This document shows positions 5,194-16,708 of a DNA stretch of 64,000 nucleotides, one piece after another. The position numbers and the translations under genes were made by a program. Source of the stretch: Candidatus Eisenbacteria bacterium (GTDB lineage: Bacteria; Eisenbacteria; RBG-16-71-46; CAIMUX01; JAHJDP01); NCBI GenBank assembly GCA_018831195.1, contig JAHJDP010000023.1, positions 186,001 to 250,000 on the forward strand. The letters are read 5' to 3'. How positions within the stretch are numbered: the stretch's first letter is position 1; each line of letters starts with the position of its first letter. The notes beneath the pieces were generated by a model. The model had not been told where the DNA came from, ran no database searches, and saw only the letters and a list, made by a program, of their open reading frames with translations.

Positions 5194-8031
5194 TCATCGC
5201 ATCAAGACGCACCGCGCCGATACCGACCCTGTCTCGCCGCTCGCCTTGATCCAATAGATACCGTTGGGACAAGCCGTCCCATCTGATTTCCGGCCATTCC
5301 ATGAAAGATCCCGTGATCCCGTTGCGGCCGGTCCATCATAGATCTGCGCGACACGCTGTCCGGCAATATTGAAAATATCGATTTGTACATTCTGTGCTTG
5401 TGGGAGCTCAAGACGTAGAGTGAGGTGCGAACTGAACGGTGTCGGATGCGGGGAGAGACTTAGACCGTTAAAGAGTTGTTGCGCCGGATCATCCACCTCG
5501 CTCGCCGGCGCCAATTCACAATATTCCACCCCTTCCACATTTCCATTGCCGTTCCCGGCCGGCGCCTGGGCGATCAGAGCTCCGCCGTCTTGTGTTTCAT
5601 AACCCAAGGCCGCGAGCCAGAAAGTCTCGGGTATCCCGCCGGGATAGAGGGCGTCGAGATTCAATGTTCCCTCAAGCACCGCTCCCTGGGCGAGTCCGTA
5701 AGAGACGCCGCTTTGCACCGATTGCGCGGCGTCAAACCAGCCGATCCATCCATTGCCGTCCTCGGCGGCGAGGAAGTAATCCCATTCTCTCACCGAGCCG
5801 GACTTCGCCCAGGGAGCATTGACAACAGACGACGTGTCGGTCAGTACCATCAGAAAATGATCCAGATCGGCCGTCGCGCCGATCCCCTCCGTGGCGAGAT
5901 AAAGAATATTGTCTTCCCGGGCTCCCCACAGGGAGAGGCCGCCGCCGGAAGCCAGCAGCGCTACGCCGTCATCCAGCGATCCGTCCATGACGTAACCGCC
6001 TGAGGCGTCTTCGCCGACATAGACATGCTGGATTGGTGTGCGCTTGATATTCCCAAGGTTGTCTTCGGCTTCAACATAGTAATCGAGCAGCGTCTCGGCA
6101 TAGCCGGTGAGCTGGAGCCAATATTCATCAGCGATATAATCGGGCAACACGGTGAAATCGATCCCGGGAATGTCCCAGGGCTCGCCGATCGGGAAATCGC
6201 GATAGGTCATCGGAAGCGCCGTCCATGCGCCGGTCTCCGCGCCCCCCGCGAATGTTTCGTTGTCATGCGACTCAGGATCGTTCCAGCCGTCGAGATCCTC
6301 ACGGATCATCAGCTCGATCCTGGCGAGACCCGAGACATCATACGCAAAAGTCCAAATATGAAAGTCGGATGACATCGGCGCGCCGGCGCCGCCGGGATAT
6401 CCCCACAGCGCGCCCCCGCCGGATCCGCCGGGATTCCAAGGCAATCTCTGCGGCAACCAGATCGTCGGCGCCGTGCCGTCGGATCCGCCCGCGATGACCG
6501 CATCGGCTGCGGTGACGGCGTTGTTACAAGCCAGCGTCGCCTTGATCTCCATATCGATCGAACTGCCATAGTACATATAGCCGCTCTCGTAGCCGGCCAG
6601 CAGATGATGCCAGGCCCGCTCCGCATTATTGGCTCCCGTGGGATTCACAATCTTTTCCGGATCAACGCCGCCCAGGATCTGCTCGGCCGTCTCCACACGA
6701 TTCTGCGCCGCGGTGAGGACGGCCCAATTGCGTTCATCCTCGGCCCAGCCGCTGGGGATATCAAAGGCGCCGGACGGATCGACGAGGGGCCAATTCCAAT
6801 TGATATACTGCGGGCTGCCGAAATCGCCATCGGCATTAACCCATCCGCCGTCTTCAATGTGCACGATATCATCAGCCGGCACGGGGTGGTCTTGGAGATA
6901 CTGCGCCACGACCGTCGGTGTATAACCGGCCGAGGCGGCTTGGTGCGAAAACTGCGGTACGCTTTCGTAATAGTAGCTGTAACCTCCCGCCCAATGATTA
7001 TCACCGTCATGCGCGAAGAGCACGAGCATCGGTTGATTCGGATTGTTGCTCGACGCCATCGCGTCGATCGAACCCGTCCCGAACATCCCCGAGCCTTCCT
7101 CCCACCCCATAGCGTTCGCCGCCGGAATCACCACGATTTGTGAAACCTCCCCAGTCAGCGGATCCACCGCTTCGGCCTGATGCGGTGTGAACCCGAACGG
7201 ATAAGGCACCTTCAGCGTGACCCCGCGGGAAATATAATGACTTGTATAATCGTTCTGCGCCGGATTGATCTTATCGGCCGCATTGGGCGGATCGCAGTTG
7301 TCTTCATTGGCGGCGTAGGGGTAATTAGCGCAGGCGCGCGCGATATGGACATCCGGCACAATCACCCATTCCAAACCCGCCTCGACCAGGGCGGGGATCA
7401 ACCGTTCGCTGAAACACATCTCGGCGGGGAAGAATCCCTTCGAATAATCATTATCCCCCCAGGCCGTGTCGTAAATCGCCTTGGCGCAGGCCAGCTCTTT
7501 GCGCACCGCGTTTTCATCCATGAGGGCGTTGATGCCGTGGTGATGGCCGACGACCACCATATCCATCCGCCGCTTCCCGCCGGATGTCGTCCAGCCGCGC
7601 GCCTCGCGAAAATTCGCGGACCAGTTCGATGCGTAACGCCCGCCGTTCCATCCGGCATCGCCGAGGCTTTTTATATTTTCGATCAGGGCGCCGGCGAAGG
7701 AAACCTGTGCGCCGGCCTCGGGAAGATCGAGCATCGAATTCACCGCGTCGCGGGGCGACCATTGATAGGCGGCAACGCGGTCATCAACGTTAAAGATTGA
7801 GAAAACATCACTCTCGCTATGCCCGAGGGCGATCGTTTCATAGGCCGTCTCATAACGGCCGGGCGTCCAGGTGCTGTTATCGGGCCAGTAAATCGGCTGA
7901 TGCATGTGCCAAAGATAACTCGTGTGAACGCCGGTCGACGCGGCGGAGCCGTCTATAAATCCGCTCAGGAGGCCGCAGAGAGCGCTGATGAGAAGGGTGA
8001 CAATGAGAAGGGTCCCGCGGCTTCGAATCAT
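5194..8031 (-). CDS. Secreted GH57 family glycoside hydrolase with C-terminal sorting domain
   Basis: A 945-residue protein with an N-terminal signal segment (residues 1-30). The GH57 catalytic barrel starts at about 36 with SYLWHMHQPIYW, the diagnostic HQP motif at 44-46. FFPAEMCFSERL follows (E204 the likely nucleophile region), and LFAHDGDNHWAGG at 339-350 holds the candidate acid Asp. Members of the family hydrolyse or rearrange alpha-glucans (alpha-amylase, amylopullulanase, branching enzyme); the exact activity cannot be told here. Residues ~550-850 hold Ig-like and CBM/DOMON-like modules. The last ~85 residues are a FlgD/T9SS-type sorting module (FNIAGQRV, LSWNGRKSDGT, GIYWIKA, CVLMR at the end). 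The start is preceded by GGAGGAATA. It is transcribed divergently from a second GH57-like secreted protein. Confidence 0.88.
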   Translation of the reverse strand: MIRSRGTLLIVTLLISALCGLLSGFIDGSAASTGVHTSYLWHMHQPIYWPDNSTWTPGRYETAYETIALGHSESDVFSIFNVDDRVAAYQWSPRDAVNSMLDLPEAGAQVSFAGALIENIKSLGDAGWNGGRYASNWSANFREARGWTTSGGKRRMDMVVVGHHHGINALMDENAVRKELACAKAIYDTAWGDNDYSKGFFPAEMCFSERLIPALVEAGLEWVIVPDVHIARACANYPYAANEDNCDPPNAADKINPAQNDYTSHYISRGVTLKVPYPFGFTPHQAEAVDPLTGEVSQIVVIPAANAMGWEEGSGMFGTGSIDAMASSNNPNQPMLVLFAHDGDNHWAGGYSYYYESVPQFSHQAASAGYTPTVVAQYLQDHPVPADDIVHIEDGGWVNADGDFGSPQYINWNWPLVDPSGAFDIPSGWAEDERNWAVLTAAQNRVETAEQILGGVDPEKIVNPTGANNAERAWHHLLAGYESGYMYYGSSIDMEIKATLACNNAVTAADAVIAGGSDGTAPTIWLPQRLPWNPGGSGGGALWGYPGGAGAPMSSDFHIWTFAYDVSGLARIELMIREDLDGWNDPESHDNETFAGGAETGAWTALPMTYRDFPIGEPWDIPGIDFTVLPDYIADEYWLQLTGYAETLLDYYVEAEDNLGNIKRTPIQHVYVGEDASGGYVMDGSLDDGVALLASGGGLSLWGAREDNILYLATEGIGATADLDHFLMVLTDTSSVVNAPWAKSGSVREWDYFLAAEDGNGWIGWFDAAQSVQSGVSYGLAQGAVLEGTLNLDALYPGGIPETFWLAALGYETQDGGALIAQAPAGNGNGNVEGVEYCELAPASEVDDPAQQLFNGLSLSPHPTPFSSHLTLRLELPQAQNVQIDIFNIAGQRVAQIYDGPAATGSRDLSWNGRKSDGTACPNGIYWIKASGETGSVSARCVLMR

Positions 8032-8245: not shown

Positions 8246-11200
8246 ATGACATCCGTCATCCGCCGTATCAGACACGTGGCACCGATCCTCGCACCGATCC
8301 TTCTGGCCATATTGGCCTCTTTTGCCGTCTTTGGAGGCCCGGCCGGCGCCGCGCCGCTGGACGCCACCGGCGATCTGGACTCCTACCGGTCCATCGATGT
8401 TAAAGCTCTCGATCCGGTCTTCGACGGCGCCGCCGAGGGGACCTCGGGTGACCTGATGGCTTTCTTCTACAATCAGGAGCAGGAATGGCTTCTCTTCCGG
8501 GTCGGGTTGTTCGAGATGATTCAGGAAGGGCGGAACCGTTTTGCCCAGGATCAAACCCGCGTTTATATTCTTCTCGATTATAGGGACGGCGGAACCCGTC
8601 TTCTCCCCGCAGGGGTGGCCGGTTCGGCGCCGATTTCCTGGGATGAGGCGCTCTGCCTCGATTATCTTGATTCCCAAGGGGCGCAACCCCGCGCACGCTA
8701 TTTCACGGCGGATGGAAGCGAAGCCGGATCGAGCCTCATCCGGAAAATCCACGCCACGCCTTCGCTTGGAACACTGGAAGCCTCCATTCACCTCCCGGCC
8801 GCTTTTATACAAGCGACCGACAGGATCGCCGGCGGGCGCTCCTATGCAGAGATCGCCGAAACCGACGCGACACCGGTCGACTTTTATATCTTCACGACCG
8901 ACGGCCGTGTTGTTCTCGATGATATCGAAACATCACAGGACACCCGCCTCACCGCTCACAATGTCGCCTTTGTACAACATGGCAACCAGGGCCTGACATG
9001 GAGCACGGTCTTCCGCGGGGAACGCGGGGAAACACCCGGTATGGAATGCGATCCAGCCAATCCGGATGACGGATTCGACGAGATCATGGCGGTGCATGAA
9101 TGTTACAGTATCCCCTGCAACTTCCATCTCGCCGCGACGCTGCAGACCTCGGCTGAATGGCATGATCCCTCCTTTAATGAGTGGCTCGTGAACGGCATTT
9201 CCGCCGGCTGGGCTGAGATGACTAGTTCGGCCTATGCCCAGCACATCATGCCTTTTGCGCAGAACAATATGAACGATTGGGCGGTCTATATTGAAAAGCA
9301 GATGACCGATTGGCGTTATGGAGTGGACACGAAGGTCGCTTGGGTGCCCGAGCGGGTTTGGCTGGAGAATCCTGATGTCGATGGAAACGGCATCGACGCC
9401 TCGTGCGGCGTCGTCGATCCGACGATATCCGACAACTGGCTTCCCAACGGCATCGAAGCGGTGATCCTTGATGATTATGTTCATTGCGGCTATTACAATA
9501 CCGCCTTCGACGACCGGCACATCTATACCCTTCCAAACGGCCTCAAGATCCTCCCCATCGACAACGATTTCGTCGGCAATGTGAATTGGAACTGGGGCCA
9601 GGCTTGGAATACAATCATCGGACTTTCCTCCGACGAGCTCTTGATCTATGGAAACGACTGGGAGATCGCCGCGGAGGTGAGCCAGGGCGCCGGGAATTCC
9701 GAGGGCTTGAACAATTACATTCATGTCATACAAAACTGCTCGACCTATAGCGCAACGGTCAGCACCTGGAAACTCTCCGACACCCTGAATGAGGGCGGCT
9801 TCTATTACGGCTCCAACCCCATCACCGTGCAAAACGGCACCTACGGCCTGCTGGGTGAATTCTGGGGATACGGCGGCGGCTGCAACAGCTGGTATATTGA
9901 TTGGGCAAGTTATACAGGCCAGGAAAACTCGGATGGCCACTCCCCCAAGTGGAATTACGGCGCGATTTGGAACAACACGCTGACAAAGCTGATGTCCAGC
10001 CCGTCCAACGATCTCTCAGAATCGGGCTGGTATACCTTTATGTCCATGATGCATGAGACCGGGTGGCATGATGACGGATATGTCTCCGGCTGGATCCATC
10101 ATTACTCAAATCACATAAAGAACGCCAATGCCTATGCTGAAGCATCCCGCTGGGCCGATGGGCAGTATGTCAATCCCACCGGCGCCTATCTTTCCGACTT
10201 CGATGAGGACGGCATCGAAGAGCTCGTGATCTATAACGAGCGGATCATGGCCGTTTTTGAGTCGATCGGCGGGAAGGCGAACTATATTTTTGCGAAGGGA
10301 TCCGGCTACGGGTACTCCGTCGGCAGCAACTGTCCCGTCTATTGGGTCGACACCAACGGCGACTATAACGAAACGAATCATGTGGCGCCCCTGTCCGACG
10401 TCAGCATCGGCGGCATGGATCGCGAAAACGATCTCTACGGCTTCGAGGTTGTGCAAGCGAGCGGGGATACGGTACAGATCCGCCTGGTTCACCCCGCCGT
10501 ACAGAAAACGATCACGGTCGTCAGCGGACAGCCTTATCTCCGCGTTACATACCGGACCGGCGGCGCGGATGCTTATGTTAAATCCGCCTGGACACCCGAT
10601 CTGGTCGATCTGCTCTGGAATGCTGATCTCGATCGCGTTTGGGATAACGGCGGCCGCTATTTCGGGCAGCAGAATCCCAACACCAATGCGACGGCGGCGA
10701 TCATCACCGGCACTGCAGGGGCGGACCATAATTTCCAATTCAGCGCGACCCTGATGGAGGGGGATGAGATCCACGCGGAGGAATCTTTTGAGGTTCTGAT
10801 CTACGCAGGGTACGCGACCACGGTCGACGGAAATGAAGAAGTTCCCGAGCTGGAAGCTCTGGCGGCGGTCTTTGCCGATGAGCTGGCGCCGCTCGCCGTA
10901 TCGGGAACCTATTACCCCGGCCCCGACCGGCTGGTCCTCATCTTCGATCAGGCTGTACAATATGACGCGATCGTCCTGACCGGCATCGGGATCGATGATG
11001 ACGACGACGGCATGCCGGATGTGGCCCTTTCCGCTTCCTGTACCGTCCTGTCGACGAGCGATTCGAAGCGAATTGAGATTGAATTAGATGAATCCACGGC
11101 GAACGCTCTTGAGACTCTTAACACCGAGACTCTAGAGCTCCTGCTCGACGCCGGCGCGGTTATGGATGGAGCGGGAAACGGGAATAGCGCCCTCGACAAC

Positions 11201-12247
11201 ACGGCTGATATCGCCATTCAGTATCAACCCGCGACGACGATCACGATTGACGGTTTTGTCGATAGTGAGGAATGGACCGCCGAAACACTGCTCCACGATG
11301 ATGGCTGGGATTCCGCGTGGACGACACCGGCGCCCGGTGACACCAACGAAATCGTCGCGCTCTATACGACCTGGGACGAGACCTACTTGTACATTGCGGT
11401 GCATGGCAAGGTATACGGAAACAGCTGGCTGCTCTACATCGACACCGATCCTAATGGACCCAACGGCGAGGATGATCTCACCGCGATTGACGCCTGGGAA
11501 CGGGGCGCCTCTTTCTCCTGCCCCGGTTTCCTGGTCGATTTTGAGTATGGCTGTTACCAGCACCAGTCCCCCTATGACGGCAACGGACTGTGGAGGATCC
11601 TCTCGCCGACGACCACCGAGAATGTCACCGAGCAGGTGATTCTCGCCTTCGACTCGGCCCATTTCTACGGCGACGAAGGTGGGAGCGAGTTGGCGATTCC
11701 CTGGGATGTTCTCTATGAATTGGGCCCCGGACTGGTTCCGGTCGGCGCGCAGGTTTCGGTGGTCGCCTCCATCTGCTGGGACCCGGAACCTGACGGTGAG
11801 CTGGGTGGCGATTCCGCGCCCAGCAATCTCATCGCCGATCTGCCGGAATTGGACAATTGCATCTCCTTCATCGTCGATGGCGATCATGACGGACTGCCCG
11901 ATATACCGGACAGTGATGTGCCATGGGAAAACAGCTCACCGGCGCAAGCGACAATCCAGCTGAGTCCGAATCATCCCAATCCCTTCTCCGCGGGAACGAC
12001 GATTCATCTGCACCTGAATTCCGGAAATGACGCGTCATCCCAGCTCCTGCCGGTTCACCTGCGCGTTTTTGATATAGGCGGCCGGTGTGTGAGGAATCTC
12101 TACTCCGGATCGCTTTTGGCCGGCGGACATCAACTCTATTGGGACGGCCTTGATGACAACGGCATCCATCTCGCCAGCGGTAATTACATGATCCGAGCCG
12201 AATCGGGGAGGAAGAGGGTGTCGCAAATGATCACGATTGTGCGGTAG
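8246..12247 (+). CDS. Large secreted GH57-like glycosidase with CBM9-like and sorting domains
   Basis: A 1333-residue protein; the start is fixed by AAGGAGG seven bases upstream. A signal peptide (about 1-36) is followed by a DOMON/CBM9-like segment (about 40-230, LDSYRSIDVKALDPVFDG). A GH57-like barrel begins at FVQHGNQGLTWSTVF (~245). Its VAWVPERVW motif at 363-372 (E369) matches the WxPE nucleophile motif of GH57, and SMMHETGWHDD near 605 holds acidic candidates. At about 1000-1210 there is a CBM9-type carbohydrate-binding module (ITIDGFVDSEEW, YLYIAVHGKVYG). The C-terminal ~85 residues are a FlgD-like sorting module (LRVFDIGGRCVRNL, LYWDGLDDNG, MITIVR). It is probably exported and binds and cleaves polysaccharide. 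The GH57 call rests on motifs and overall layout; a more distant alpha-glucan or deacetylase-like activity is possible. Confidence 0.75.
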   Translation: MTSVIRRIRHVAPILAPILLAILASFAVFGGPAGAAPLDATGDLDSYRSIDVKALDPVFDGAAEGTSGDLMAFFYNQEQEWLLFRVGLFEMIQEGRNRFAQDQTRVYILLDYRDGGTRLLPAGVAGSAPISWDEALCLDYLDSQGAQPRARYFTADGSEAGSSLIRKIHATPSLGTLEASIHLPAAFIQATDRIAGGRSYAEIAETDATPVDFYIFTTDGRVVLDDIETSQDTRLTAHNVAFVQHGNQGLTWSTVFRGERGETPGMECDPANPDDGFDEIMAVHECYSIPCNFHLAATLQTSAEWHDPSFNEWLVNGISAGWAEMTSSAYAQHIMPFAQNNMNDWAVYIEKQMTDWRYGVDTKVAWVPERVWLENPDVDGNGIDASCGVVDPTISDNWLPNGIEAVILDDYVHCGYYNTAFDDRHIYTLPNGLKILPIDNDFVGNVNWNWGQAWNTIIGLSSDELLIYGNDWEIAAEVSQGAGNSEGLNNYIHVIQNCSTYSATVSTWKLSDTLNEGGFYYGSNPITVQNGTYGLLGEFWGYGGGCNSWYIDWASYTGQENSDGHSPKWNYGAIWNNTLTKLMSSPSNDLSESGWYTFMSMMHETGWHDDGYVSGWIHHYSNHIKNANAYAEASRWADGQYVNPTGAYLSDFDEDGIEELVIYNERIMAVFESIGGKANYIFAKGSGYGYSVGSNCPVYWVDTNGDYNETNHVAPLSDVSIGGMDRENDLYGFEVVQASGDTVQIRLVHPAVQKTITVVSGQPYLRVTYRTGGADAYVKSAWTPDLVDLLWNADLDRVWDNGGRYFGQQNPNTNATAAIITGTAGADHNFQFSATLMEGDEIHAEESFEVLIYAGYATTVDGNEEVPELEALAAVFADELAPLAVSGTYYPGPDRLVLIFDQAVQYDAIVLTGIGIDDDDDGMPDVALSASCTVLSTSDSKRIEIELDESTANALETLNTETLELLLDAGAVMDGAGNGNSALDNTADIAIQYQPATTITIDGFVDSEEWTAETLLHDDGWDSAWTTPAPGDTNEIVALYTTWDETYLYIAVHGKVYGNSWLLYIDTDPNGPNGEDDLTAIDAWERGASFSCPGFLVDFEYGCYQHQSPYDGNGLWRILSPTTTENVTEQVILAFDSAHFYGDEGGSELAIPWDVLYELGPGLVPVGAQVSVVASICWDPEPDGELGGDSAPSNLIADLPELDNCISFIVDGDHDGLPDIPDSDVPWENSSPAQATIQLSPNHPNPFSAGTTIHLHLNSGNDASSQLLPVHLRVFDIGGRCVRNLYSGSLLAGGHQLYWDGLDDNGIHLASGNYMIRAESGRKRVSQMITIVR

Positions 12248-12255
12248 ATCTGAAA

Positions 12256-12288
12256 GACCCCGGGGGCGAAGTCCCCGGGGTCAAATTT
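12256..12288. terminator. Bidirectional hairpin terminator
   Basis: A 10-bp GC-rich perfect stem (GACCCCGGGG at 12256-12265, CCCCGGGGTC at 12273-12282) with loop GCGAAGT is followed by AAATTTC. It lies between the converging GH57-like gene and the Cys-rich lipoprotein gene, so it can serve both. A hairpin with nearly the same arms occurs at 30985-31013. Confidence 0.7.
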
Positions 12289-12348: not shown

Positions 12349-12885
12349 CTACTTGCCTCCAACCGCCTTATCGCCGCCCTTGTCTCCGGACATCATGGGG
12401 CAAGCACCGGCGCACTTCTTTGCACAGGCCGTCGTGTCTTTGCCCGTACAAGCCGCCGCGCAAGCCTTCTGGCAGGCGGCGCCATCCCGTCCCGCACAAG
12501 CCTTGGCGCAAACTTCGGCGCATTTCTCTTTACATTTGCCGGTGCAGGTATCACCACACTCAGCTTTGCAGATCTCCTTGCATTGCTGCATCAGCTCCGG
12601 CGAACATTTCCCAGCACAAGCCCCGGCACAAGCCTTCTGGCAGGCGGCGCTATCCCCGCCCGCGCAAGCCTTTGCACAAGCCTCAGTACAAGCCTTCTGG
12701 CAGGCCTTGTTGCAGGCGGCGTCATCGGCCAGCCCTGAATTTAAATCGGATGATGGAATGGCAATATCATCGCTCGATGAGGTGACATCACCCTTTTCAG
12801 TTGAAGTATCCCCACTGCATCCAACCGCCACGAAACCGAACCCAAACAAACAAACGATCATTAAGATCGACAGAAATCGAGTCAT
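12349..12885 (-). CDS. Cys-ladder lipoprotein, putative periplasmic metal-binding protein
   Basis: A lipoprotein of 178 residues. The start at 12885 is favoured by GAGGAG eight bases upstream; an in-frame ATG at 12900 overlaps the preceding stop codon. The signal peptide ends in a lipobox (VAVGC). The mature part carries about 23 further cysteines, most spaced exactly four residues apart (CNKACQKACTEACAKAC), so they would line one face of alpha-helices. Three segments repeat GxDxxACxKxCxxAC. Copper-storage proteins of the Csp type use similar CxxxC ladders to hold Cu(I), but no homology could be tested and the Ala/Lys-rich sequence may be unrelated. It is the last gene of an operon that also encodes a metal-sensor-like protein and an ECF sigma/anti-sigma pair. 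Metal binding is inferred. Confidence 0.8.
   Translation of the reverse strand: MTRFLSILMIVCLFGFGFVAVGCSGDTSTEKGDVTSSSDDIAIPSSDLNSGLADDAACNKACQKACTEACAKACAGGDSAACQKACAGACAGKCSPELMQQCKEICKAECGDTCTGKCKEKCAEVCAKACAGRDGAACQKACAAACTGKDTTACAKKCAGACPMMSGDKGGDKAVGGK
12461..12708. repeat. Direct DNA repeats inside the Cys-rich lipoprotein gene
   Basis: The 20-bp unit CAAGCCTTCTGGCAGGCGGC starts at 12461 and recurs at 12629; a third, shorter copy begins at 12689. The first two copies remain similar for about 50 bp. Spacings are 168 and 60 bp, whole codon numbers, so the cysteine ladder probably grew by in-frame duplication. Confidence 0.75.
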
Positions 12886-12896
12886 CAAATCACTCC

Positions 12897-13418
12897 TCAT
12901 TTTGATCCATCCTCTCTGGTTCCCATTGGCTCCGGATTACAGACTCCGGAAACCCCTCCTCTCATCCCCATACTTCCACAACTTTGACGAAAGTATTGGA
13001 AATACCTCTCTTGTTGCTTCTCCGACAGCAACTGTTTCTCTTTCAACATCTGCTCAATGATCAGGCTCTGCATCTCCCGCTGATTATCGAGAATCTTTTC
13101 TTGGAGTTCGTTAATCCGGATCTGGTTTGGTTCCGCTGCAGCGATCTCATCGATCAACTCCGCACGGGGACCGTCCAAGCGGCGGCAAATGTCACAACGC
13201 TTTTGATTAAATTCCTCAATCAGGGGCAAGATCGAAGCCCGATCCTCGGCGGTGAAACCGATCCACTCATGGGGACCGCATTGGACACCGCATTCCGCCG
13301 GCACACCGTCATCGGAGTGCTGATTCCCCGGTATCGCCCTCGCGCCCCAGACAATGAGAATCGTCAGATTAAAGGCAAGGGAGAAGATGAAGATGACAGA
13401 GATGATTTTTCCTTTCAT
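12897..13418 (-). CDS. CnrX/ZraP-like periplasmic heavy-metal sensor protein
   Basis: A 173-residue protein with one N-terminal membrane anchor (residues 2-24, IISVIFIFSLAFNLTILIVW). The periplasmic helical part holds several Cys and His: CGVQCGPHEW, then FNQKRCDICRRLDGPR, a long coiled helix (about 75-130) and QSCGSMGMR. The fold pattern matches the LTXXQ/metal_resist group (CnrX, ZraP, Spy), small helical proteins that bind Ni, Co, Zn or Cu or sense envelope stress. The start at 13418 has GGAGAGGG upstream and overlaps the anti-sigma stop codon as ATGA, which implies translational coupling. In the CnrYXH system the X protein binds metal and frees the sigma factor from its membrane anti-sigma; the gene order here invites the same reading. 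Confidence 0.75.
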   Translation of the reverse strand: MKGKIISVIFIFSLAFNLTILIVWGARAIPGNQHSDDGVPAECGVQCGPHEWIGFTAEDRASILPLIEEFNQKRCDICRRLDGPRAELIDEIAAAEPNQIRINELQEKILDNQREMQSLIIEQMLKEKQLLSEKQQERYFQYFRQSCGSMGMRGGVSGVCNPEPMGTREDGSK

Positions 13419-13942
13419 CGTTCCCTCTCCTGCGCCGCTAAATCCGCGACCAATGCCAAATAGCTCTCCAGCAGAGATCCCTCGGGAGACGCTCCGAGGC
13501 AATCCTCGCCGTAAAGCAGCTGCGCCACGCCCCGTTCATCATTGACACCCTCGGTGGAAGCACCGGGCGGGGCGTTAAACAATTGTGATCCCATAAGACC
13601 GCCGAGAATCACACCCAGGGCTGATGCCGCCAGAGTTGCCGCACGGAGTCCTCTCCCCGCCACTCGCCACCATTCCAGCGGCCGGAGCAGAGATTCAAAA
13701 AGGCTCTCCCGGTCAAACATGATCTTGCGCTCGGCGGCCAGCAGGACCCGCGCATGAAATCCATCCGGCGGATCCGACTCACCAAAATCATGAAGAAAGT
13801 TAATGATCCGGCGGCGCTCCCGCGCCTCGGCCCGGCACAAATCACACTGTTTGAGATGCTGTTCTATCAGACGCGCTTCCTCCGGCGCACAAACCCCGGA
13901 GTTATAGGTATCAAGGATAGCCTTCACCTGATCACATCTCAT
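13415..13942 (-). CDS. zf-HC2 membrane anti-sigma factor
   Basis: A 175-residue protein. I chose the ATG at 13942, which has GGAGGAGATGAA before it; a longer reading frame to 13990 lacks that support. The N-terminal zinc-finger anti-sigma motif is clear: MRCDQVKAILDTYNSG, then IEQHLKQCDLCRAE at about 28-41 (H-x3-C-x2-C). A single transmembrane helix (about 98-118, LRAATLAASALGVILGGLMG) follows, then a short periplasmic tail. It lies 59 bp downstream of the ECF sigma gene and overlaps the metal-sensor gene by 4 bp. It should hold the sigma factor at the membrane until a periplasmic signal arrives. Confidence 0.88.
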   Translation of the reverse strand: MRCDQVKAILDTYNSGVCAPEEARLIEQHLKQCDLCRAEARERRRIINFLHDFGESDPPDGFHARVLLAAERKIMFDRESLFESLLRPLEWWRVAGRGLRAATLAASALGVILGGLMGSQLFNAPPGASTEGVNDERGVAQLLYGEDCLGASPEGSLLESYLALVADLAAQERER

Positions 13943-14001
13943 TTCATCTCCTCCACCTTTATAACGTGGCAAAATCGGAAATCCCCCCATAAACCAGATC
14001 C

Positions 14002-14565
14002 CTAAAGGGAATCGCAGCCCTCTTCATCCGGCAGCAGGCGCCTCAAACGCTCCCGCGCGCGCGCCAGGTGCCGTTCCACGGCCTTCTCTGAACCGCCGAT
14101 CACTCCGGCGATCTCCGCATGCCGAAGTCCGTCATAGTATTTCAGGACGATCGCCACACGCTGTTTCGGCGGCAGGGTAAGAAGGGCCGCGCGGACCCGC
14201 TTGCATCGTTCATCGTCTTCCCGGATTTGAGATGGCGAGGGATCGGTGCTCTGGGGATCGGGCGCCTGATCGGTATAGATTGGCCGTTTTTTGCGCGACC
14301 GGTCGATGCAAAGCCGGCCGACAATCCGCAGGAGGTAGGCCCGAAGACTGCCGGTGGATTGGAAAGGAGACTTGGCCGTCAGCGCTCTAAGGAAGGTCTC
14401 TTGAGCCAGATCCTCCGCCTCGACGGCATCACCGGTAAAACGAAGGGCCGCATTCCAGATACATTTTTGATAACGGCGGACAACCTCGTCAAAAGCGCCC
14501 AAATCACCGCCGGCGACGCGCCGTATCAAAGCGTCATCGGAGGAATTGTCGGTGGGTCGCATCAT
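14002..14565 (-). CDS. ECF-family RNA polymerase sigma factor
   Basis: A protein of about 187 residues. Region 2 is clear (FDEVVRRYQKCIWNAALRFT, then DAEDLAQETF-type EAEDLAQETFLRAL). Region 4 has LPPKQRVAIVLKYYDGLRH and an HTH (AEIAGVIGGSEKAVERHLAR). The start at 14565 (ATGATG) is a choice: the reading frame extends to 14706 into the upstream gene, and the ribosome binding site is weak. The gene sits between a polyferredoxin gene and its presumed anti-sigma, all on one strand. It probably transcribes its own operon in response to metal or redox signals. Confidence 0.9.
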   Translation of the reverse strand: MMRPTDNSSDDALIRRVAGGDLGAFDEVVRRYQKCIWNAALRFTGDAVEAEDLAQETFLRALTAKSPFQSTGSLRAYLLRIVGRLCIDRSRKKRPIYTDQAPDPQSTDPSPSQIREDDERCKRVRAALLTLPPKQRVAIVLKYYDGLRHAEIAGVIGGSEKAVERHLARARERLRRLLPDEEGCDSL

Positions 14566-14641
14566 ACCGTCACCGGTTCCTATGTCCCCCGAGGCTCCAT
14601 CCGCCCTTTGTGGCCGGATTCGGGAATTTAGTGAATGCCGA

Positions 14642-15817
14642 CTAGTGATTGCCGAAGGGATTATACCCTTCGATCGTAAAAGGGGACGCGCGCCAGAGAT
14701 TCTCACCCAAATTGTAATAGGGCTCCGTCACGGCTTGCCGCACAAGCTCCGCATCGGCCTTTGCGGGATCATATATGATTTTGGCTTTCGCGGCACCCGG
14801 TCCGGGCCAGGCCTCGAGCTTTAAGTAACCCGGAATTTCAAACTCATCATCGCGATCCAGGAAAAAAACCAGCAAAGAGGCCCGGCCGCGGCACGTAAGA
14901 TCGTGGATCCCCAGCTCGACACTTGCCACCTTCCCGATAGCGGCACCCCTTTTATAGGTGAATGACGGCATGGGATTGAATACCGATGCGGCGACGGCGC
15001 CCATGATGCAAAGCAACAGGATGATCACCGGCACCGGATAGGGTAAGTTTCGTTTCGGCGCCCAGAACGGTCCCCAGGTCAGCGCTCCTCTTTTGGCGGA
15101 TGGGCAAACCGTCACGCACTCGAGACAAGTTGTACACCGCGCCGCGGTGATCTCCTCATCTTTATCGATCGGAATCGCCATGAGGCAGGATTTGGCGCAC
15201 AGACCGCAATCGGTGCAGGCTTCCGGATCCCGCCGGACACGCGTTAATCCCATTTTGGAGAAGGGTTGAAGCACGGCAGCCAGCGGGCACAACCAGCGGC
15301 AGAAGGGAATCGTGACGAGGATCGATCCGGCAATGATAAAACCTGAAACGACATAGGCCCAGAGGGTGATGTCATCGCCATGGCGGCTGAGCAAGGCATA
15401 GCAGGGATCGTAGCCGCGGAATATCAGCTCGCCGGTCCGATAGGTAAAATAGAGGATAAGCGCAAGCACTCCGTATTTCAGGAGACTTAACACCCGGTCG
15501 AGTCTATGAGAAATCCTGAACGGATTGATGCCGATTCGCACCGCCCAGCGGTGAATCCACTCAGAGATGGCTCCGATCGGGCAGACATAACCACAAAAAA
15601 CACGCCGCAACAGCAGTGTCATCAACAGAACGGCCCCTAGGATATAAAAATTGGAAACGCCGAGGGAACAGGGCATATTGCCGTCGGTGAAATAGGCGTA
15701 GATGGCTTCTATCCCCCCAAAGGGACACCACCTCTCGGCATTGCCTTTAACAATAAAAACCGCCGCCAGCGTGAGAGCCAAAAATGACAGCTGGAGAGTT
15801 GTTCTGAGCTTTCTCAA
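14642..15817 (-). CDS. NapH/CcoG-like membrane polyferredoxin with degenerate HMA-like C-terminal domain
   Basis: A 391-residue integral membrane iron-sulfur protein with about five to six membrane helices. The loop motifs FCGYVCPIGAI (near 74) and FCRWLCPLAAV (near 172) are typical of the NapH/NosR/CcoG group. A cytoplasmic 2x[4Fe-4S] ferredoxin domain at about 200-245 has CTDCGLCAKSC and CTTCLECVTVC. After a further helix, residues 300-375 resemble a heavy-metal-associated (HMA) domain (IYDPAKADAELVRQAV), but the usual GMTCxxC is reduced to HDLTCRGRA with one Cys. NapH passes electrons across the membrane; CcoG reduces Cu(II) for oxidase assembly. A redox step on a metal is plausible but inferred. 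It starts 21 bp after the TPR gene. Confidence 0.82.
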   Translation of the reverse strand: MRKLRTTLQLSFLALTLAAVFIVKGNAERWCPFGGIEAIYAYFTDGNMPCSLGVSNFYILGAVLLMTLLLRRVFCGYVCPIGAISEWIHRWAVRIGINPFRISHRLDRVLSLLKYGVLALILYFTYRTGELIFRGYDPCYALLSRHGDDITLWAYVVSGFIIAGSILVTIPFCRWLCPLAAVLQPFSKMGLTRVRRDPEACTDCGLCAKSCLMAIPIDKDEEITAARCTTCLECVTVCPSAKRGALTWGPFWAPKRNLPYPVPVIILLLCIMGAVAASVFNPMPSFTYKRGAAIGKVASVELGIHDLTCRGRASLLVFFLDRDDEFEIPGYLKLEAWPGPGAAKAKIIYDPAKADAELVRQAVTEPYYNLGENLWRASPFTIEGYNPFGNH

Positions 15818-15838
15818 TATCTTCTAAAACCGAATTTT

Positions 15839-16708
15839 CTATTTTGAGGAACTTGCGGGAGCGCTTTGGCTTCCCCCGCAGCTCTGCCGGCTCGGACAAT
15901 TACCGCAGCTCGTTCCACCGCTGCAACCCGATTCTGAGACCTTCGACTGAGTTTCGAGGGCCTTTGTAAAGACCGGGTTATTCAGCAGGCCGGCGAAATC
16001 CTTGCAGGCCATTATCTGGCGGCGGGCCGTTTCAATGCGGCTGGGAGGAATCGATTCGAGTGTGCGTGTCAGGTAGGCCGCGGCGCCCGAATCATTGCCC
16101 GTTAAGGCGTAAAGCCGGGCTGATTGATAGAGCATGCCCGGTGCCGCCGCCTCTGGAATCTCGACGTTTTCCAAAACCTTTTTTGCAAGTTCGATCTTCT
16201 GCTGACGCCCGAGGGCAATCCCATAAAGCAGCCGTCCGTAGGGCAGGGCCGACGCCTCGTCGACTCCGGCCAGAATCTTCTCGGCATCCGCATTCTTATT
16301 CAATTGAAGATACGTTTCCGCCAACTGCGTTGCGCTGAGCACTGAATCGATCTTCTTGTGAACCATCAGGTCAAGATCAAGCGCCTCTTCATAGATCTCT
16401 TTAGTGTAGTAATACCCGCGTAGAGATTGCGCCATTCGTTCCCAAATCTCGGGATCCTTCTCCGACTTGATATCTTCGCGGATTTTCATCACCCGGTGCA
16501 GAATAGCCTGCTCCTGTCTGTATTCCGTCTTTGAACCATCGATCTCGACAGCCTCCCCGTAGGCCTCATAGGCGCCAGAGAAATCACCTTTTGAAAGCCG
16601 CTGGGTCCCCATCGCGAAGGCTTCCTCGGCCGTTTTCGCCGAAGCGGCAAAGGGTGTTAAAAAAGTCACGGCGAGAATCGAAAGGATCACCGAAAGCTTT
16701 GAATGCAT
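15839..16708 (-). CDS. Exported TPR protein with Cys-rich C-terminal tail
   Basis: A 289-residue protein starting at 16708 with GGGGAGAAG upstream. The signal peptide spans residues 1-25 (ending AASAKTAEEA). TPR-like helices fill about 28-245 (FAMGTQRLSKGDFSGAYEAY, then ATQLAETYLQLNKNADAEKI and ALYALTGNDSGAAAYL-type segments). The last 30 residues hold five cysteines (SGCSGGTSCGNCPSRQSCGG) in a Gly/Ser-rich tail, a possible metal-binding or redox site. It is the first gene of the six-gene operon and may act as a periplasmic scaffold for the metal-handling proteins encoded downstream. I do not recognise a named family beyond TPR. Confidence 0.75.
   Translation of the reverse strand: MHSKLSVILSILAVTFLTPFAASAKTAEEAFAMGTQRLSKGDFSGAYEAYGEAVEIDGSKTEYRQEQAILHRVMKIREDIKSEKDPEIWERMAQSLRGYYYTKEIYEEALDLDLMVHKKIDSVLSATQLAETYLQLNKNADAEKILAGVDEASALPYGRLLYGIALGRQQKIELAKKVLENVEIPEAAAPGMLYQSARLYALTGNDSGAAAYLTRTLESIPPSRIETARRQIMACKDFAGLLNNPVFTKALETQSKVSESGCSGGTSCGNCPSRQSCGGSQSAPASSSK

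What the first reader, a model, noticed from the sequence alone, without database searches (positions are those of the whole stretch)
12349..16708. Six-gene ECF-sigma operon for envelope metal or redox response with unusual parts
The gene order is exported TPR protein with Cys tail, NapH/CcoG-like polyferredoxin with an HMA-like end, ECF sigma, zf-HC2 anti-sigma, CnrX/ZraP-like sensor, Cys-ladder lipoprotein. All are on one strand with small gaps or stop-start overlaps. Sigma, anti-sigma and sensor match the CnrH/CnrY/CnrX logic. The effectors are not the usual efflux pump but a membrane electron-transfer protein and a cysteine-laden lipoprotein. A working model is reduction of a metal (perhaps copper) followed by capture on the lipoprotein. 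The effector set is what I do not recognise from described systems.
Basis: partly seen in the sequence, partly recalled or inferred. Interest (0 to 1): 0.78.

Follow-up and report, generated by a model that had tools for sequence, protein, structure and literature searches.

The report
ECF-controlled metal-reductase operon, two modules
Six adjacent genes join a common metal-sensing gene switch to a little-known membrane electron-transfer unit ending in a copper-chaperone-like domain with only one of the usual two cysteines; the switch and the unit each occur elsewhere, but this six-gene set was seen only in this genome.

Summary
The six genes are real: minus strand, 12349-16708, close-packed, ending at a strong terminator. 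The six-gene set is not conserved. Among 47 genomes of the phylum, two separable modules recur. (1) ECF sigma / zinc-finger anti-sigma / Metal_resist sensor: common. The same genome holds two more copies, and 15 of 30 Metal_resist loci in the phylum lie beside an ECF sigma. The sensor family is CnrX/NccX/Spy-like, but this sensor keeps about one CnrX ligand and gains cysteine pairs. (2) A NapH/CcoG-like polyferredoxin with a periplasmic HMA-type domain, fused or as the next gene. In 14 divergent loci, inside and outside this phylum, the domain keeps one invariant Cys and never the second Cys of CxxC. Six of the 14 also have an adjacent exported protein ending CGxCPx4C: the TPR protein in the window and one relative, a second HMA-like protein in four others. 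The lipoprotein's 23 ladder cysteines all fall in one 4-residue register; no homologue was found. Most likely role: ECF-controlled envelope response that reduces and captures a thiophilic metal, probably copper. The metal is inferred. The switch is of a known type; I found no description of module 2 in the papers searched.

The parts
15839..16708 (-). Exported TPR protein (289 aa) with C-terminal tail CSGGTSCGNCPSRQSC
   Evidence: TPR 1e-6; 38% identical homologue in G003 with all four tail Cys; tail CGxCPx4C shared with unrelated HMA-like proteins
14642..15817 (-). NapH/CcoG-like membrane polyferredoxin (two CxxxCP motifs, two 4Fe-4S ferredoxin motifs), last TM at about residues 262-280, then a predicted periplasmic single-Cys HMA-like domain (Cys309)
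   Evidence: NapH/MauN 9e-20, below the family cut-off; 54-55% identical homologue
14002..14565 (-). ECF sigma factor (187 aa)
   Evidence: Sigma70_r2 2e-17, r4_2 6e-17; sigma70-ECF 1.5e-32, above cut-off
13415..13942 (-). Membrane anti-sigma factor with an N-terminal HxxxCxxC zinc-finger (zf-HC2), one TM and a short periplasmic tail
   Evidence: zf-HC2 22.4 bits, cut-off 22.2; alignment with anti-sigmas of other trios; TM 100-118
12897..13418 (-). Membrane-anchored periplasmic sensor, Metal_resist/CnrX-like, with CxxxC...H and CxxC
   Evidence: Metal_resist 33.8 bits, cut-off 29.2; helical hairpin, pLDDT 62
12349..12885 (-). Predicted lipoprotein with a cysteine ladder: 23 Cys between residues 63 and 167 (numbered from the ATG at 12900), all in one 4-residue register
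   Evidence: 168-nt spaced internal duplication, 82%; all-helical model, low confidence
12256..12282 (.). Strong palindromic terminator between this cluster and the convergent gene 8246-12247 (+)
   Evidence: 12 pairs, 10 G-C, loop 3

Best explanation
A two-module operon. A CnrX-type envelope sensor and a zinc-finger anti-sigma hold an ECF sigma inactive until a thiophilic metal (or a thiol-oxidising condition) reaches the periplasm. The sigma then raises expression of a reduce-and-capture set. The polyferredoxin passes electrons from the cytoplasm or quinol pool through its 4Fe-4S clusters to CxxxCP sites in the membrane and reduces the metal, most likely Cu(II) to Cu(I). The attached periplasmic one-Cys HMA domain takes the reduced ion and hands it to the CGxCPx4C tail of the TPR protein and/or to the helical Cys-ladder lipoprotein, which stores it as Csp1 does. 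Shown: genes, domains, the one-Cys HMA family, the tail shared by two scaffolds, recurrence of each module. Inferred: co-transcription, topology, metal identity, direction of electron flow, storage.
For: Compact single-strand cluster closed by a terminator. Trio recurs in the phylum; 15 of 30 Metal_resist loci have an ECF sigma within 1.5 kb; two further trios lie in the same genome. Sensor profile hits NccX 2e-4, CnrX 5e-4, Spy 9e-6. The C-terminal domain profile hits Cu-ATPase HMA domains, CopZ and MerP. The one-Cys HMA is fused to or directly follows the polyferredoxin in 14 divergent loci from this and other lineages, and those polyferredoxins form one side of a supported branch (99/96) against four without it. 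CGxCPx4C tail conserved on TPR proteins (window, G003) and HMA-like proteins (four loci), always beside this polyferredoxin. CcoG, a related polyferredoxin, is a demonstrated cupric reductase and raises Cu tolerance; Csp1 is an exported Cu(I) store (PMC7558416).
Against: No relative joins the trio to the polyferredoxin unit, so shared regulation rests on this genome alone. There is a 76-nt gap before sigma; no ECF promoter was identified. The sensor lacks most CnrX metal ligands. One-Cys HMA domains lack the usual Cu(I)-binding CxxC. The lipoprotein has no homologue, and its model is low confidence (pLDDT 63). No Cu ATPase, multicopper oxidase or Cu regulator lies in the cluster. The reductase direction is an analogy with CcoG.
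Confidence: 0.45

Rival explanations
1. Thiol-redox relay instead of metal capture. The polyferredoxin is a DsbD/CcdA-like supplier of reducing power; the one-Cys HMA domain and the CGxCPx4C tail exchange disulfides, and the ladder lipoprotein is a thiol buffer. The sensor reads its own cysteines.
For: Single Cys rather than a CxxC metal site in all 14 HMA domains; Cys pairs in the sensor, absent from the sensors of other trios; a distant plasmid homologue in Ca. Chlorohelix sits among rhodanese, glutaredoxin, TusA, DsrE and thioredoxin reductase genes.
Against: That homologue lacks the HMA domain and falls outside the clade. The partner domains belong to the HMA family, not thioredoxin, and the regulator is of metal-sensor type.
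Confidence: 0.2
2. Chance neighbours: the TPR-polyferredoxin pair and the sigma trio plus lipoprotein are two separately controlled units that happen to lie head to tail.
For: TPR-polyferredoxin occurs without the trio in G003; trios occur without it in the same genome and others; 76-nt gap between the units.
Against: Same strand, no terminator called in the gap, and both units carry unusual numbers of exposed cysteines.
Confidence: 0.2
3. The polyferredoxin unit is an electron feed or maturation factor for another envelope enzyme, as NapH or MauN are, and the degenerate HMA domain and tail serve as docking pieces with no metal chemistry.
For: Best named matches are NapH/MauN and NosR. Neighbour genes of the unit differ from locus to locus, so there is no fixed metal-resistance context.
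Against: No dedicated oxidoreductase recurs beside it, and one Cys is invariant in otherwise divergent domains.
Confidence: 0.15

Closest known systems
CnrYXH / NccYXH regulatory systems of Cupriavidus
   Same: ECF sigma, membrane anti-sigma and a membrane-anchored periplasmic helical-hairpin sensor; the sensor family profile matches CnrX and NccX structures.
   Different: The anti-sigma has a zinc-finger (zf-HC2) domain; of the CnrX ligands (His42, His46, His119, Met123, from memory) only a His at the His46 position aligns, and cysteines are added; no CnrCBA-type efflux pump.
CcoG/RdxA and YccM polyferredoxins (CcoG is a cupric reductase)
   Same: Membrane polyferredoxin with two 4Fe-4S motifs; CcoG reduces Cu(II) (PMC7558416).
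   Different: The C-terminal periplasmic domain is HMA-like with one Cys, whereas CcoG has an Ig-like domain and YccM none (PMC7558416); no ccoGHIS or cbb3 oxidase context.
NapH/MauN ferredoxin-type proteins
   Same: Best NCBIfam match (9e-20) over residues 5-240.
   Different: 71 bits against a 213-bit cut-off; extra TM plus HMA domain; no nap or mau genes nearby.
HMA proteins (CopZ, MerP, Cu-ATPase metal-binding domains)
   Same: Profile similarity over the whole domain to PDB copper-ATPase domains, CopZ and MerP.
   Different: Second Cys of CxxC absent in all 14; membrane-tethered on the predicted periplasmic side beside a ferredoxin.
Copper storage proteins Csp1/Csp3
   Same: Exported (Csp1), helix-rich, regularly spaced cysteines suited to line helices.
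   Different: No sequence match to any PDB chain or Pfam family; lipoprotein, not a Tat substrate; strict 4-residue register and an internal duplication.

Membership tests
CnrYXH-type ECF system | ECF sigma adjacent to a membrane anti-sigma and a periplasmic sensor of the CnrX/Metal_resist fold | tested here: met
   Metal_resist above its Pfam cut-off
CnrYXH-type ECF system | Ni/Co ligand set of CnrX in the sensor | tested here: not met
   only the His at the CnrX His46 position aligns; His119 and Met123 positions are not His/Met; ligand identity from memory
CnrYXH-type ECF system | Linked RND efflux genes | tested here: not met
   neighbours are TPR, polyferredoxin, lipoprotein, a large GH57-like/FlgD_ig protein and a periplasmic binding protein
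CcoG cupric reductase | Polyferredoxin core with CxxxCP motifs and two 4Fe-4S clusters | tested here: met
   C75/C79, C173/C177, C201-C211, C228-C238; invariant in the three-sequence alignment
CcoG cupric reductase | C-terminal Ig-like domain | tested here: not met
   HMA-like instead
CcoG cupric reductase | Reduces Cu(II) | not testable with these tools
   Needs purified protein
NapH (TIGR02163) | Score above the curated cut-off | tested here: not met
   71.3 bits, cut-off 213
HMA domain (PF00403) | Family-level sequence similarity | tested here: met
   family profile hits many HMA chains (8e-7 for an isolated single domain, 2e-26 for a six-domain chain); single sequences fall below the Pfam cut-off
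HMA domain (PF00403) | CxxC metal-binding motif | tested here: not met
   one Cys invariant, the second replaced in 14 of 14
Copper storage protein (Csp) | Homology to known Csps | tested here: not met
   no Pfam or PDB match
Copper storage protein (Csp) | Cys-lined helical bundle | tested here: inconclusive
   helices with a Cys every four residues, model pLDDT 63

The most novel reading that the evidence does not exclude
The polyferredoxin plus one-Cys periplasmic HMA domain, with or without a CGxCPx4C-tailed partner, is an undescribed bacterial metal-reductase/chaperone system found in several phyla, in which reduction and first capture of the ion sit on one polypeptide; here it has been placed under a CnrX-type ECF switch and given a Csp-like storage lipoprotein that arose independently of known Csps.
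Probability: 0.33. Interest if true: 0.75.

Novelty: new variant of a known kind. Interest (0 to 1): 0.52.

Why it matters
How bacteria reduce copper at the membrane and pass Cu(I) to a safe acceptor without releasing it is largely open; [quoted passage not shown] A polyferredoxin with its own periplasmic HMA domain, conserved beyond one phylum, offers a compact testable candidate with defined residues (Cys309, the CGxCPx4C tail). If copper proves wrong, the same unit would be a new route for sending electrons to periplasmic thiols.

Tried and rejected
Six-gene synteny: searched and not found. Homologues of the ladder lipoprotein: one weak hit in G005 and pattern hits in other genomes look mostly like 12-nt minisatellites or simple repeats, often open in more than one frame or without a start codon, and were discarded; the window gene is not such an array (one search finds only short, weak 12-nt stretches; SD, signal peptide and varied codons). 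A genome-collection scan with the polyferredoxin returned one false hit inside a beta-lactamase-like gene. Viral contigs: nothing. Plasmid homologues of the core examined lack the HMA domain. Three small phyla searched around distant hits gave no full-length match. AlphaFold models were single-sequence and low confidence (63 and 62), so no fold search was run on them; loci from the genome search are not on the list of sequences accepted for folding, so no alignment containing them was submitted. PADLOC: nothing. Promoter scan: no more sites than shuffles, and ECF promoters are not covered. Caps left the presence of Cu ATPases in the genome unsearched.

Full report
What is there. The cluster lies on the minus strand, 16708 down to 12349, in the order TPR, polyferredoxin, sigma, anti-sigma, sensor, lipoprotein. 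Gaps are 21 nt, 76 nt and 59 nt, then a 4-nt ATGA overlap between anti-sigma and sensor, then a start either overlapping the sensor stop (12900) or 11 nt beyond it (12885, preceded by GAGGAG). A 12-pair hairpin at 12256-12282 separates it from a convergent gene. Pfam confirms TPR, Fer4_5 with 4Fe-4S dicluster, ECF sigma, zf-HC2 and Metal_resist; the lipoprotein has no family.

Module 1, the switch. Metal_resist genes occur in 33 of 47 genomes of the phylum. Of 30 such loci examined, 15 have an ECF sigma within 1.5 kb. Complete sigma / anti-sigma / sensor sets were read in L081 and L082 (same genome as the window), L083, L087, L088 and L093; L086 has the same layout with a truncated anti-sigma reading frame. 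The sensor family profile matches Spy (9e-6), NccX (2e-4) and CnrX (5e-4) in the PDB. So the CnrH/CnrY/CnrX reading of the regulator is sound and the arrangement is common. The window's sensor differs: only its His50 falls on a CnrX ligand position in the alignment, and it carries C43xxxC47 and C75xxC78, pairs the other aligned sensors lack. This points to a soft metal or a thiol signal, which is inference.

Module 2, the electron-transfer unit. The polyferredoxin has two CxxxCP motifs and two 4Fe-4S ferredoxin motifs, resembles NapH/MauN below that family's cut-off, and ends with a last TM (262-280) and about 107 residues outside any Pfam model. G003 holds a 55% identical full-length homologue directly after a 38% identical TPR protein, with no sigma, anti-sigma or sensor there. 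In G034, G001 and G006 the C-terminal part is a separate gene right after the polyferredoxin; in G005 it is fused. The separate versions match HMA weakly, and the combined profile finds copper-ATPase HMA domains, CopZ and MerP, so the 'HMA-like end' is correct. A search of 385 genomes extended the unit beyond the phylum: fused in G350 and G134, split in G335, G164, G090, G219, G200 and G123. Over 14 sequences exactly one Cys is invariant at the HMA metal-loop position (LTCRGRA in the window, VKCKGTA, VRCVDTA and the like elsewhere), and the second Cys of CxxC is never present. Polyferredoxins with this domain separate from four without it on a supported branch (99/96; midpoint root).

The tail. 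The TPR proteins of the window and G003 end in C-x5-CGxCPx4C. In G034, G001, G350 and G090 the gene after the polyferredoxin/HMA pair encodes an exported second HMA-like protein, without CxxC, whose C-terminus is CGxCPx4C with identical spacing. Two unrelated scaffolds carrying the same tail beside the same membrane protein suggests the tail is the functional part that meets the polyferredoxin or its HMA domain. The tail-bearing rows fall in two clusters on the tree, so gain, loss or scaffold replacement cannot be told apart.

The lipoprotein. All 23 cysteines after the lipid Cys lie at 63+4k, from residue 63 to 167, with four empty slots; 18 CxxxC pairs against a maximum of 10 in 10,000 shuffles. 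The gene contains a 168-nt-spaced duplication. A single-sequence model gives five helices after the signal peptide, pLDDT 63. No convincing homologue was found in the phylum set. Storage by analogy with Csp1 (PMC7558416) is a hypothesis.

How it probably works. See best explanation. Shown by sequence: gene content, domain families, one-Cys HMA conservation, tail sharing, modularity. Inferred: one transcript, periplasmic side of the HMA domain (the split forms have an N-terminal TM), copper, reduction, hand-over and storage.

Comparison and novelty. The switch is a known kind with altered ligands. The polyferredoxin core is of the NapH/CcoG kind; its combination with a one-Cys HMA and a CGxCPx4C partner was not found in the literature searched (open-licence papers only, so absence there proves little), and Pfam and NCBIfam gave no specific model for it. 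The six-gene combination is so far known only here. I therefore call it a new variant of known kinds.

Noticed in passing
L037:4021-5766 (-) and L036:3475-6123 (+): In G001 and G034 the gene upstream of the polyferredoxin is a membrane protein with C-terminal TPRs (PMT-like in G001), so TPR proteins precede the unit in four genomes although the proteins differ.
   Followed up: partly
L081:3648-6041 and L082:2750-4343 (same genome as the window): Two further ECF sigma / anti-sigma / Metal_resist sets; L081 has a second Metal_resist gene downstream.
   Followed up: partly
L088:2535-6599: In G021 the trio is followed by TolC-like and HlyD-like genes (by eye), an efflux-type output for the same switch.
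   Followed up: no
L035:11250-11500 and L084:3671-4123: 12-nt minisatellites in G003 and G005 that read as cysteine or arginine ladders in some frames; they mimic the lipoprotein in pattern searches.
   Followed up: yes
L173:3856-5455: In G335 a different sigma factor and an anti-sigma-like gene lie about 0.4 kb downstream of the one-Cys HMA gene on the same strand; possibly coincidence.
   Followed up: no
window 5194-8031 (-) and 8246-12247 (+): Two divergent large secreted proteins with weak GH57 similarity and FlgD-like C-terminal domains; one also weakly matches a Por secretion tail.
   Followed up: no
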